A DNA stretch of 64,000 bases. Source: Subtercola frigoramans (GTDB lineage Bacteria > Actinomycetota > Actinomycetes > Actinomycetales > Microbacteriaceae). Below are positions 24,700-28,354 of the stretch, piece after piece. The stretch lies in the NCBI RefSeq assembly GCF_016907385.1, contig NZ_JAFBBU010000001.1, forward strand, positions 3,410,001 to 3,474,000. The letters run 5' to 3'. The notes below the pieces were generated by a model. That model did not search any database, was not told the origin of the DNA, and saw only the letters and a list, made by a program, of their open reading frames with translations. The translations under genes were made by a program, and so were the position numbers. The first letter of the stretch is position 1. Every line of letters begins with the position of its first letter.

Positions 24700-25014
24700 T
24701 TACTCCTCGTCGCCGCCTTCGAGCCGCTCGACGGTGATGGTGCGGGCCGACCTTCGTGCCGACCGCTCGATGAGCAGCGCCACCACTGCTCCCACGCCGA
24801 TTCCGACGACGACGAACACGAGCGCCAGAAAACCGAATACCTGGGCCAGGTTGAAACCCTGGGAGCCTGAGAAGGCAAGCGTCAGGATGATCGCGACGAC
24901 GACCCCGGCGATCGCACCGACAGCGAAGAACCTGAAGTACCGCGGGGCGCGGTGAATGGTGACGATGTCGTCGCCGGCAACCGTTTCGACGGGGAACTCG
25001 GGAATGTCACTCAC
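24700..25014 (-). CDS. Small two-helix membrane protein
   Basis: 104 residues. An N-terminal cytosolic part with TVAGDDIVTIHRAPRYFRF is followed by two hydrophobic helices (about 31-50 and 58-82) and a basic then acidic tail (RSARRSARTITVERLEGGDEE). Conserved small actinobacterial membrane proteins of this type are uncharacterised. The GTG start comes directly after GGTGAGG. It is 56 bp after the SCP-like gene on the same strand, so the two are probably cotranscribed. Confidence 0.7.
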   Translation of the reverse strand: MSDIPEFPVETVAGDDIVTIHRAPRYFRFFAVGAIAGVVVAIILTLAFSGSQGFNLAQVFGFLALVFVVVGIGVGAVVALLIERSARRSARTITVERLEGGDEE

Positions 25015-25070
25015 CTCACCATTGTGGCGTACGAGTCTGGGTGTCTGTGCTGTGGGGCGGTCTGCCCCGG

Positions 25071-25547
25071 TCAGCGGAGCCCGGTGATGGGCACGTAACC
25101 CGTGAGGTCCGCTCGCTGCCCCGAGGCGTGAACCCGCCCCGACTGCACCCCCGCTGCCCAGTCGAGCCGGCCCGTGACGAGCGACAGCCAGGTCTCCGCA
25201 TCGGTCTCGACGACGTTGGGCGGGGTTCCGCGTGTGTGCCCCGGGCCCTCGATGCACTGGATCGCACCGAAGGGAGGCACCCTCACCTCGACGGTATTGC
25301 CCTTCGCCTGTTCGGCGAGAACCTGCAGCGAGTACCTGACAGCGGTGGCGAGTGTGTCGCGGCTGACCCCTGCCAAGCGGGCTGCTGATGCTGCTGCTGA
25401 TGCTGATGCTGATGCTGATGCTGATGCGGGCATCGAATCCGGCCCAGCGGGATCGTTCGACCTCGAGGGGAGGTCGGAGATCGCACGAACGGCGGCCAAT
25501 GCGCTCAATCCTGTTTCCTCTGGAATCTTCGCCCGTGCCACGGTCAC
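25071..25547 (-). CDS. Sterol-carrier-family-like conserved actinobacterial protein
   Basis: 158 residues. The C-terminal 100 residues (AVRYSLQVLAEQAKGNTVEVRVPPFGAIQC ... HTRGTPPNVVETDAETWL) match a conserved actinobacterial family annotated as sterol-carrier-like, found often near purine genes; its biochemical role is not known. An internal Ala-Ser repeat (about residues 41-56) comes from a GCATCA hexamer tract and is probably a disordered linker. The start GTG is the first in frame with the conserved N-terminal VARAKIPEETGLSAL block; no ribosome site is evident. Confidence 0.75.
   Translation of the reverse strand: MTVARAKIPEETGLSALAAVRAISDLPSRSNDPAGPDSMPASASASASASAAASAARLAGVSRDTLATAVRYSLQVLAEQAKGNTVEVRVPPFGAIQCIEGPGHTRGTPPNVVETDAETWLSLVTGRLDWAAGVQSGRVHASGQRADLTGYVPITGLR
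25384..25425. repeat. GCTGAT hexanucleotide tract
   Basis: Seven tandem GCTGAT units (the second is GCTGCT) inside the SCP-like gene, coding for alternating Ala-Ser on the minus strand. Copy-number change would lengthen or shorten the linker without a frameshift. Confidence 0.8.
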
Positions 25548-25590
25548 CAGACTAGGCGGCGAACGGGCGACGCGGTACGCACCGGCCGAA

Positions 25591-25830
25591 GGGTTTTCGC
25601 GAGGCCGGGAGCTGGGGGGTACTCCTCGGCCCCGCGAAAGGTGTTCGTGCAGAAGCCGGCTGGGGGGTTACCGGCTACTGCACGAAGGGGTTCGTGTGAC
25701 GGACGGGGTCTTGGGGGGTGTCACGCCCGCCACACGAGATTGTGGGGTAACTCGTGCAGCAGGTGGCCGGGTTAGGGGGAAACTCGACCACCCGCCGCAC
25801 TGAGTCCGTGAGGTCAGAATCGGCCTCACA
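25591..25830 (-). ncRNA. Expanded 6C-type RNA: tandem hairpins with C-run loops
   Basis: Read on the minus strand there are six successive hairpins: H0 25808-25829 (GTGAGG/CCTCAC), H5 25762-25792 (loop TCCCCCT), H4 25733-25756 (loop with CCCC), H3 25691-25738, H2 25644-25686 and H1 25596-25638. H3, H2 and H1 each expose exactly CCCCCC. Rfam 6C RNAs of actinobacteria are defined by hairpins with at least six C in the loops, usually two of them. The H3 stem has two G-U pairs and H1 one G-U pair on the minus strand that would be mismatches on the plus strand, which supports this orientation. H4 shares bases with H3, so these two may be alternatives. Ends are approximate, and the only -10 candidate (TTATCT near 25832) is weak. 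Confidence 0.65.
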
Positions 25831-25978
25831 CAGATAAGAGAGTGGTGCACCCGGCTTTCATTACGCGGTTACGCAAACTTCTTCGAATTTCTTTTCCGAC
25901 GATTCGCGCCCCCCACGATGCCCGACCCCGACCGCCTTCGCCCACGCCCTCCAGCCCGCGCCTGGGACGCCTCGGCCC

Positions 25979-25984
25979 TAGAAT
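25979..25984 (+). promoter_or_regulatory. -10 box of purD-purC (leaderless start)
   Basis: TAGAAT, 6 nt before the GTG start codon. No ribosome site can fit, so the fusion gene is probably translated from a leaderless mRNA. Confidence 0.6.
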
Positions 25985-25990
25985 CATCGA

Positions 25991-28354
25991 GTGAAGATTC
26001 TCGTTCTTGGTTCCGGTGCCCGCGAGCACGCCATCGTCAGTGCGCTGCTCGGCGAAGACGAGATTCACGAGATCATGGTTGCGCCGGGCAACGCCGGGAT
26101 CGCCAGCGCCAGCACGAACGTCACGGTTGCCCCTCTCGACGCCAATGACCCCGGTGCGGTGACGAACTTCGCCAATCAGCACAGCATCCAACTCGTCGTC
26201 ATCGGCCCGGAGGCCCCCCTTGTCGCCGGCGTCGCCGACGCCCTGCGAACCCGTGGCATCGCTGTCTTCGGGCCGAGCCAGGCCGCCGCCGCTCTCGAAG
26301 GCAGCAAGACCTTCGCCAAACGCATCATGGATGCGGCGGGTGTACCGACGGGCCGCGCCCTGCGCGCGGTGACCTCTGCCGATGTCGAATCGGCCCTCGA
26401 CAGCTTCGGTGCACCCTACGTCGTCAAGGCCGACGGGCTCGCCGCAGGCAAGGGAGTGCTCGTCACGTCAGACCGCGCGGCAGCCCAGCAGCACGCCTCG
26501 ACCTGGCTCGCCCACGGCGACGTGCTCTTCGAGGAGTTCCTCGACGGCCAGGAGGTCTCACTGTTCTTCGTGAGCGATGGCCACACGGTTGTGCCGCTCT
26601 CGCCCGCCCAGGACTACAAGCGCCTGCTCAACGGCGACCAGGGCCCGAACACCGGCGGAATGGGCGCCTACTCGCCGCTGCCCTGGCTAGACGACGAGTT
26701 CGAGAGCGAAGAGGACTTCGTGCAGGAGGTCCTGGTCTCGATAGCGCTGCCGACCATCCGGCAGCTTGCGCACGAAGGCACCCCCTTCGTCGGGCTTCTC
26801 TACTGCGGGCTGATCCTGACCAGCTCGGGCATCCGGGTGATCGAGTTCAACGCCCGCTTCGGCGACCCCGAGACCCAGGTCGTGCTGCCGCGGCTGACCA
26901 GCTCGCTGAGTGGGCTGCTGCTCGCGGCGGCGACCGGAACCCTCGGCGCAGTTCCCCAGCCGACCTTCTCCACCGACCGCGCCGTCACCGTCGTGCTCGC
27001 GAGCGAGAACTACCCGGAACCGCCTGTCGTCGGCCGCGAGATCACCGGGCTCGCCGCCGCAGCCGAGGTTGAGGGCGTGCACGTCACGCACGCAGCAACG
27101 GCCTTCGGCGCGAGTGCCGAAGGCCAGGTGGATGACCGGCTGCTCTCCACCGGCGGCCGGGTGTTGAGCGTGGTGGCCCTCGGCTCCACCTTCACCGAGG
27201 CACGCCGCCGGGCGTATGCGGCCATCGGACTGATCGGGCTCGAAGGATCGCACTACCGCACCGACATCGCGGCACGCGTCGAGGAGCAGGCCGCAGGCGG
27301 CAGCACATCCGATGGCACGTCGGCTGTCGGCTCGGGGCTGGCCCTCGACTCGGAGTCACCAACTTCTGGGATCGCGACGTCTGGACCGGCCGCTGCTGCG
27401 GCAGGCGGAACGGTCGCGGGGGCCGACCCGGGCATCCCGAGCAGCGCGGAACAGATCGACGGCTGGCGGCACGTGTACTCCGGCAAGGTGCGCGACCTGT
27501 ACGTGCCTGCCGCGTCGACATCGCTCGCCGACGCGACTGCGGTACTCGTGGTCGCGAGCGACCGGGTGAGCGCGTTCGACTTCGTGCTGGAGCCGGGCAT
27601 CCCACAGAAGGGCGAGCTGCTCACAACGCTCAGTCGTTGGTGGTTCGGGCAGCTCGATGGGTTCGCGAACCACGTGCTCGAGGGTTCGTCCGTCGCACAG
27701 TCGACTCCCGCCGGCGGAGCCGCCCCCGCTGTTCCCGCCCGCTTCGCCGCGCGATCGATGGTGGTGAAGCCCCTCGACATGTTCCCGATCGAGTGCGTGG
27801 TGCGCGGGTACCTCGCCGGCAGCGGCTGGGCCGAGTACCAGAAGACCCAGAGCGTGTGCGGGGTCGCCCTGCCTGCCGGGCTTCGCGACGGAGACAGGCT
27901 GCCGAGCCCGATCTACACCCCGGCGTTCAAAGCCGAACTGGGCGACCACGACGAGAACATCACGTTCGAGCGCACGGTTGAGCTGGTCGGAGGCGATGTC
28001 GCCGCCGAGCTGCGGCGACTCTCGCTCGAGGTCTATGCCCGGGCATCCGGTATCGCCGAAGCGCGCGGCATCATTCTCGCCGACACCAAGTTCGAGTTCG
28101 GCGCCGACCGCGACACCGGCGAGATCACCCTGGCCGACGAGGTGCTCACCAGCGACTCGAGCAGGTTCTGGGATGCTGCGGCCTACGGCTCAGGCGAGCG
28201 CACGGCCAGCTTCGACAAGCAGATCGTGCGCAACTGGCTCGCCGCGAACTGGGACAAGACGGGTACCCCGCCCGCTCTGCCCGCCGCGATCGTCGAGCAG
28301 ACCGCTGCGCGCTACCGCGAACTCATCGCGCGGCTGACCGGCCCCGTCGCGTAG
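25991..28354 (+). CDS. purD-purC: Fused phosphoribosylamine-glycine ligase / SAICAR synthetase
   Basis: 787 residues. Residues 1 to about 430 are GAR synthetase (PurD): KILVLGSGAREHAI at the start, ATP-grasp segment KADGLAAGKGV near 140 and the metal/ATP site EFNARFGDPETQ near 285. A Gly/Ala/Ser-rich linker (about 430-485) leads to SAICAR synthetase (PurC): SGKVRDLY near 494, VASDRVSAFD near 517 and EIVRGYLAGS-like VVRGYLAGSGW near 602. The protein would make GAR from phosphoribosylamine (step 2) and SAICAR from CAIR and Asp (step 7), steps that are not consecutive. The fusion is continuous with no stop or frameshift. GTG start 6 nt after a TAGAAT box. Confidence 0.93.
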   Translation: MKILVLGSGAREHAIVSALLGEDEIHEIMVAPGNAGIASASTNVTVAPLDANDPGAVTNFANQHSIQLVVIGPEAPLVAGVADALRTRGIAVFGPSQAAAALEGSKTFAKRIMDAAGVPTGRALRAVTSADVESALDSFGAPYVVKADGLAAGKGVLVTSDRAAAQQHASTWLAHGDVLFEEFLDGQEVSLFFVSDGHTVVPLSPAQDYKRLLNGDQGPNTGGMGAYSPLPWLDDEFESEEDFVQEVLVSIALPTIRQLAHEGTPFVGLLYCGLILTSSGIRVIEFNARFGDPETQVVLPRLTSSLSGLLLAAATGTLGAVPQPTFSTDRAVTVVLASENYPEPPVVGREITGLAAAAEVEGVHVTHAATAFGASAEGQVDDRLLSTGGRVLSVVALGSTFTEARRRAYAAIGLIGLEGSHYRTDIAARVEEQAAGGSTSDGTSAVGSGLALDSESPTSGIATSGPAAAAAGGTVAGADPGIPSSAEQIDGWRHVYSGKVRDLYVPAASTSLADATAVLVVASDRVSAFDFVLEPGIPQKGELLTTLSRWWFGQLDGFANHVLEGSSVAQSTPAGGAAPAVPARFAARSMVVKPLDMFPIECVVRGYLAGSGWAEYQKTQSVCGVALPAGLRDGDRLPSPIYTPAFKAELGDHDENITFERTVELVGGDVAAELRRLSLEVYARASGIAEARGIILADTKFEFGADRDTGEITLADEVLTSDSSRFWDAAAYGSGERTASFDKQIVRNWLAANWDKTGTPPALPAAIVEQTAARYRELIARLTGPVA

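What the first reader, a model, noticed from the sequence alone, without database searches (positions are those of the whole stretch)
25591..25830. Expanded multi-hairpin 6C-like RNA upstream of the purine fusion gene
Five consecutive hairpins expose C runs on the minus strand, three of them exactly CCCCCC, plus a sixth hairpin at the front. Typical 6C RNAs have two such hairpins. Stem pairs with G-U on the minus strand but mismatches on the plus strand (two in H3, one in H1) fix the orientation. H4 and H3 share bases, so a switch is possible. This could be an expanded sponge for a G-rich target, or a multi-site RNA.
Basis: partly seen in the sequence, partly recalled or inferred. Interest (0 to 1): 0.8.

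Follow-up and report, generated by a model that had tools for sequence, protein, structure and literature searches.

The report
Multi-hairpin C-loop RNA in Subtercola
A conserved small-RNA gene that holds out a row of C-rich loops, probably to grip G-rich messages, and that shares its on-switch with genes for secreted proteins.

Summary
The feature is real. The minus strand at 25830-25595 folds into a front hairpin and four very stable hairpins whose loops expose C5, C6, C6 and C6. All 12 Subtercola genomes held carry such an array between the purD-purC fusion and an SCP gene; so do 3 of 6 Agreia loci. No other array was seen in the family sample. Stems covary, loops stay C-rich, hairpin number varies from 2 to 6.

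It is not the Rfam 6C gene: the 6C model gives no hit here, and a two-hairpin 6C lies elsewhere in the 8 Subtercola genomes where I read it. The array has its own strictly spaced promoter-like box, GTAAT-N17-CTCTCTT. In Subtercola the box recurs (75 sites against 10 for a reversed control), mostly before genes with signal peptides in the sites I read.

Best reading: a multivalent 6C/B11-like regulator that pairs with G-tracts and belongs to a surface/secretion regulon. Structure and shared box are shown by sequence. Transcription, the regulator and targets are inferred, and target statistics are weak.

The parts
25836..25866 (-). Promoter-like box GCGTAATGAAAG...CTCTCTT (GTAAT, 17 bases, CTCTCTT)
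   Evidence: Same box with the same spacing before all 12 Subtercola arrays and L096 and L110; recurs before secreted-protein genes. Position. Start of transcription near 25830 is inferred.
25808..25829 (-). H0, front hairpin without a C loop
   Evidence: Pair probabilities 0.98-1.0
25754..25800 (-). H1, hairpin with loop C5 (25779-25775)
   Evidence: Pair probabilities at least 0.998, C5 unpaired 1.0
25692..25737 (-). H3, hairpin with loop C6 (25718-25713)
   Evidence: Pair probabilities 0.90-1.0, C6 unpaired 0.97
25644..25686 (-). H4, hairpin with loop C6 (25667-25662)
   Evidence: Pair probabilities 0.67-1.0, C6 unpaired 1.0; covariation in 13 sequences
25595..25639 (-). H5, hairpin with loop C6 (25619-25614); last hairpin, no U tract after it
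   Evidence: Pair probabilities 0.77-1.0, C6 unpaired 1.0; covariation in 13 sequences; no terminator-like site after it
25733..25756 (-).
   Evidence: Helix probability 0.0; C4 unpaired 0.78
25071..25541 (-). SCP_3 gene downstream with its own -10-like hexamer TAGTCT at 25554-25549, probably leaderless
   Evidence: Pfam SCP_3; TANNNT 12-13 bases before the start codon in 18 of 18 loci, three of them without an array. Start by homology.
25991..28354 (+). purD-purC fusion, divergent neighbour
   Evidence: Pfam GARS and SAICAR_synt domains

Best explanation
A stand-alone regulatory RNA of about 236 nt, transcribed from its own minus-strand promoter and built of repeated stiff stems, each presenting one C5-C7 loop (four here, 2-6 in relatives). 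It probably acts like the mycobacterial 6C/B11 sRNA: loops base-pair with G-tracts in mRNA leaders near ribosome binding sites and block translation, several loops giving multivalency or dose. Its promoter-like box is shared with secreted-protein genes, so it is probably the RNA arm of a cell-surface or secretion regulon run by an unidentified alternative sigma factor or activator. Shown by sequence: structure, conservation, separateness from 6C, shared box, signal-peptide enrichment. Inferred: transcription, regulator, base-pairing mode, targets.
For: Fold z -9.56; sense strand folds better than antisense in 15 of 15 arrays and 62 of 63 runs of C5 or more are mostly unpaired; covariation, no shuffle of 500 reaching any of five measures; array in 12 of 12 Subtercola; shared box 30 exact sites against 0 reversed, 75 against 10 with up to 3 mismatches; 27 of 32 non-array sites with at most 2 mismatches precede a signal-peptide-like start against 67 of 289 background genes; SCP has its own -10-like hexamer in 18 of 18 loci. 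Precedents: either C loop of B11 suffices to repress a leader with a G6 tract (PMC10470900, passages); F6 depends on SigF (PMC8557902, passages).
Against: No expression data. No excess of G-tracts before genes: G5 in 8 and C5 in 10 of 289 genes within 45 nt; no G6 within 40 nt in 289. Regulon leaders have G4 in 10 of 31 against 69 of 620 draws, p 0.06, with orthologues counted separately. No sigma factor found, but only seven neighbours at one locus were tested. No terminator after H5. The signal-peptide test is crude and regulon sites include orthologues.
Confidence: 0.5

Rival explanations
1. Protein sponge: like CsrB/RsmZ elsewhere, the repeated loops bind and titrate a C-rich-RNA-binding protein (for example a cold-shock, KH-domain or Rho-like protein) instead of pairing with mRNAs.
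For: Many near-identical loops with varying number (2-6) and kept C runs; G-tract targets are not enriched.
Against: No candidate protein identified; the best studied C-loop RNAs pair with mRNAs (PMC10470900, passages). CsrB likeness is recalled, not tested.
Confidence: 0.22
2. RNA sponge for a G-rich small RNA or mRNA.
For: Multiple accessible C loops.
Against: No G-rich partner RNA was looked for or found here.
Confidence: 0.1
3. A cis-acting leader of the SCP mRNA.
For: Lies upstream of SCP on the same strand in every carrier; no terminator after H5.
Against: SCP has a TANNNT hexamer 12-13 bases before its start codon in 18 of 18 loci, including three Agreia without an array, and the array ends 578 nt before SCP in G003.
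Confidence: 0.08
4. A DNA-level element: palindromic repeats that bind a protein or insulate the divergent genes, with no RNA function.
For: Repeated palindromic arms TTCGTGCGG/CCGCACGAA between two genes.
Against: G-U pairs and one-sided G-C to G-U changes appear in the RNA sense; sense folds better in 15 of 15; the two-hairpin model hits this locus alone in the 299 genomes searched (strict filters).
Confidence: 0.05

Closest known systems
6C RNA / B11 (Rfam RF01066)
   Same: Stem-loops that expose C runs; loop context similar (T before in 45 of 63, A or T after in 47 of 63 runs; 6C loops TTCCCCCCAA).
   Different: No 6C model hit; four C loops here and 2-6 in relatives against two; other locus, other upstream sequence, no U tract; a 6C-like gene coexists in Subtercola.
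Scr3202 (Rfam RF02833)
   Same: Best weak hit; two hairpins with CCCCCC loops align to H4-H5.
   Different: 26.2 bits against a cut-off of 52, E 0.34.
F6 / SfdS (Rfam RF01791)
   Same: C-rich loop; dependent on an alternative sigma factor, SigF (PMC8557902, passages).
   Different: 20.3 bits against a cut-off of 46, E 1.3; one hairpin against an array; other promoter.
CsrB/RsmZ, and RybB/MicA of the sigma-E response (recalled)
   Same: Analogies only: many repeated loops in one RNA; a small RNA as arm of an envelope regulon.
   Different: GGA loops with CsrA, or Hfq-dependent proteobacterial RNAs; no relation by sequence is claimed or was tested.

Membership tests
6C RNA (RF01066) | Match to the Rfam covariance model at its gathering score | tested here: not met
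   No hit in the window, none among weak hits up to E 10 in 25000-26500
6C RNA (RF01066) | Two stem-loops each with about six C in the loop | tested here: not met
   C-rich loops are met, but four C-loop hairpins plus a front hairpin; 2-6 in relatives
6C RNA (RF01066) | It is the genome's 6C gene (orthology) | tested here: not met
   6C-like locus elsewhere in 11 of 12 genomes at 34.5-37.9 bits, below the cut-off of 47; 8 of 9 printed loci read as 6C
6C RNA (RF01066) | Base-pairs with mRNA G-tracts through its C loops | not testable with these tools
   Needs experiment; sequence statistics inconclusive
Scr3202 (RF02833) | Gathering score 52 | tested here: not met
   26.2 bits
F6 (RF01791) | Gathering score 46 | tested here: not met
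   20.3 bits
Regulon of an alternative sigma factor | Shared, strictly spaced promoter box before several genes | tested here: met
   30 exact sites in 12 genomes against 0 reversed; 75 against 10 with up to 3 mismatches
Regulon of an alternative sigma factor | Recognised by a named sigma factor rather than an activator | not tested
   No sigma genes were surveyed; none among seven neighbours at one regulon locus

The most novel reading that the evidence does not exclude
Subtercola (and some Agreia) have an unrecognised regulon, read from a GTAAT-N17-CTCTCTT promoter, that makes adhesin-like and other secreted proteins together with one multivalent C-loop RNA. The RNA adjusts the regulon and other G-tract mRNAs after transcription: an actinobacterial counterpart of sigma-E with its small RNAs, using an evolvable array of 6C-type loops whose number sets its strength.
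Probability: 0.3. Interest if true: 0.82.

Novelty: new variant of a known kind. Interest (0 to 1): 0.68.

Why it matters
C-loop RNAs such as 6C/B11 are among the actinobacterial small RNAs with a studied mechanism (PMC10470900, passages). Here the number of loops varies from 2 to 6 among close relatives while the loops stay C-rich, so multivalency could be tested directly. The shared box links the RNA to secreted proteins and offers a way to find both the regulator and the targets. In the open-access library, 'Subtercola' with 'small RNA' gave 0 papers; 'Subtercola' with 'sigma factor' gave 2, seen as listings on other subjects, whose lists are partly capped, showed no title on such an array. 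Most subscription papers are not held.

Tried and rejected
Rejected: membership of 6C, Scr3202 or F6; the switch and the extra small hairpin; a close phage or plasmid relative (no match in either collection); a family-wide feature (array in 1 of 80 upstream regions outside Subtercola; model R1 in 9 of 299 genomes, all Subtercola or Agreia, with stricter filters that can lose weak matches).

Led nowhere or weak: an exact two-loop 6C pattern found 0 of 12 because the second Subtercola 6C loop reads TTTTCCCCCAAA; the model search corrected this. G-tract statistics show no clear signal. The crude hairpin scanner also gave 0-3 C-loop hits and 0-5 G-loop hits per region elsewhere, mostly in coding sequence. 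A first covariation count on A3 used a wrong structure and showed nothing; one search used the right one. MAFFT misaligned L007 (the window's own array) and L011 in A1, so these two rows were dropped for A3. Automatic hairpin extraction was untidy and not used. Pfam on seven neighbours at one regulon locus found no sigma factor; no neighbours were tested at the other own locus. The sigma-70 scan found no promoter; its one terminator-like hit (25852-25840) lies in the promoter region.

Full report
What is there. The window is G000:C1:3410001-3474000. Between the purD-purC fusion (25991-28354, plus strand) and an SCP_3 gene on the minus strand (Pfam), the minus strand carries a chain of hairpins. 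It folds with z -9.56 against 200 shuffles; the plus strand gives -2.91. A base-pair model gives four near-certain C-loop hairpins (C5, C6, C6, C6) and a front hairpin.

Conservation. The SCP gene is found in 156 of 160 sampled family genomes and in 12 of 12 Subtercola genomes. I examined the region upstream of it in the 12 Subtercola and in 80 other family genomes, mostly one per genus (one region, L084, is only 460 bases). All 12 Subtercola carry an array of at least four C-loop hairpins (six in G003); of the other 80 only L096 does. Among the 80 named loci kept from 148, 8 Subtercola loci carry it, and so do Agreia sp. Leaf283 (L107), Agreia sp. PsM10 (L110) and A. bicolorata (L109, two hairpins); Agreia L111, L116 and L171 do not. 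A model of the last two hairpins (R1) searched in 299 family genomes hits 9, seven Subtercola and two Agreia, at this locus alone (strict filters, 14 candidates scored in each genome listed).

Structure under selection. For the last two hairpins of 13 arrays 92.8% of cells pair, 12 of 29 pairs show changes on both sides, no shuffle of 500 reaches any of the five measures, and slid versions fall to 35.5-51.0%. For the first C hairpin of 10 arrays (two rows dropped, see Tried and rejected) 98.6% pair against 28.0-53.0% slid, but two of the five measures are reached by 15 and 39 of 500 shuffles. In 15 arrays the sense strand has the lower z every time (-6.5 to -14.3 against -1.3 to -10.0, 40 shuffles each), and 62 of 63 runs of five or more C have mean unpaired probability of at least 0.73; the exception is in L009. 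The 63 include a few runs in linkers. A T precedes the run in 45 of 63 and A or T follows in 47 of 63.

Not the 6C gene. No Rfam family reaches its gathering score in the window. Permissive scanning of 25000-26500 gives Scr3202 at 26.2 and F6 at 20.3 bits, far below their cut-offs, and no 6C hit. In the genus the 6C model finds another locus at 34.5-37.9 bits in 11 of 12 genomes, below the gathering score of 47; in the twelfth (G001) the best hit is 29.7 bits. In that loose search one of the two controls that ring is Caulobacter, so E-values there are weak evidence alone. But 8 of the 9 loci I printed read plainly as two C-loop hairpins; the ninth, from G001, does not. In 100 family genomes 27 have a 6C match at E 0.001 and 3 exceed the cut-off; the ten I read all have two C-run loops. 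The array is therefore an additional RNA.

Its own promoter-like box. All 12 Subtercola arrays and L096, and L110, are preceded by GTAAT, exactly 17 bases, CTCTCTT, then the array; A. bicolorata has a degraded form. The exact box occurs 30 times in 12 Subtercola genomes, and 0 times read backwards. A longer form with up to 3 mismatches occurs 75 times against 10 backwards. In the loci I fetched, which do not cover all 75, there are 50 distinct sites: 11 before arrays (two genomes share one sequence) and 39 elsewhere. Of the 32 non-array sites with at most 2 mismatches, 27 precede a gene with a signal-peptide-like start by a crude script, and 33 of all 39 do; the background is 67 of 289 genes called in 492 kb of the window's genome (Fisher p 1e-11 for 27 of 32). 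Orthologues from different genomes are counted separately, so the p value is too small. The five exceptions look secreted to my eye (late or mispicked starts); that is judgement. In the window's genome the sites are at C1:157005, 158755, 3035588 and 3435836, the last being the array. The three proteins carry bacterial Ig or cadherin-like domains, one also PD40 repeats. In 80 family genomes the box with up to 2 mismatches appears in 3: two Subtercola and one single hit in another genus. In six Agreia genomes there are 13 sites with up to 3 mismatches against 1 backwards; they include the arrays of Leaf283 and PsM10 and, in both, a related gene with a signal-like start. The other nine, some in array-less genomes, look like chance.

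A separate transcript. A TANNNT hexamer sits 12-13 bases before the SCP start codon in 18 of 18 loci, three of them Agreia without an array, as for a leaderless mRNA with its own promoter; the array ends 23-234 nt before SCP in 14 loci and 578 nt before it in G003. No terminator-like site follows H5, so read-through or Rho-dependent ending remains open. Transcription itself is not shown.

How it most likely works. In M. abscessus either C-rich loop of B11 (6C) suffices to repress a reporter whose eccB4 leader holds a G6 tract, and B11 loops are reported to pair with ribosome binding sites (PMC10470900, passages). F6 shows that a small C-loop RNA can depend on an alternative sigma factor (PMC8557902, passages). 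By analogy the array presents four or more such loops at once. Direct evidence for targets is weak: G5 within 45 nt before starts in 8 of 289 genes and C5 in 10 of 289, and no G6 within 40 nt. G4 occurs in 10 of 31 regulon leaders against 69 of 620 length-matched draws, p 0.06, and the pairing-energy comparison gives p 0.05. One lead: the leaders of the secreted Ig-domain protein at C1:157005 and of its relative in G004 both hold GATGGGGGCC. A protein sponge is the main rival.

Verdict. A real, conserved RNA gene with a new architecture of a known kind, tied by a shared box to a set of secreted proteins.

Noticed in passing
L203, L215, L223 (G001 near 1.72 Mb); L207, L218, L225 (G009 near 1.78 Mb): Tandem runs of small secreted-protein genes, each with its own copy of the GTAAT-N17-CTCTCTT box.
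   Followed up: partly
G000:C1:3221729-3221806 minus strand (L293), outside the window: A two-hairpin 6C-like RNA with loops TTCCCCCCAA and TTTTCCCCCAAA scores only 34.5 bits; the Rfam 6C cut-off seems to miss Subtercola and many Microbacteriaceae (3 of 100 over the cut-off, 27 at E 0.001).
   Followed up: partly
L111, L116, L171 compared with L107, L109, L110: Within Agreia the array is full, reduced to two hairpins, or absent at the same purD-SCP junction: a natural series of gain or loss.
   Followed up: partly
25385-25430, and L015: The N-terminal part of the SCP gene holds a run of CATCAG-like repeats coding for alternating Ala-Ser; in L015 the same region holds other repeats, so the extension looks fast-evolving.
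   Followed up: no
L014, between array and SCP: About a dozen near-copies of a 15-base unit like CCCGGAGGCACGCCG lie between the array and the SCP gene in G006 only, among the loci read.
   Followed up: no
L276, L278: Leaders of two regulon mRNAs themselves hold C6 or C5 runs near short inverted repeats, so C-run leaders may occur inside the regulon.
   Followed up: no
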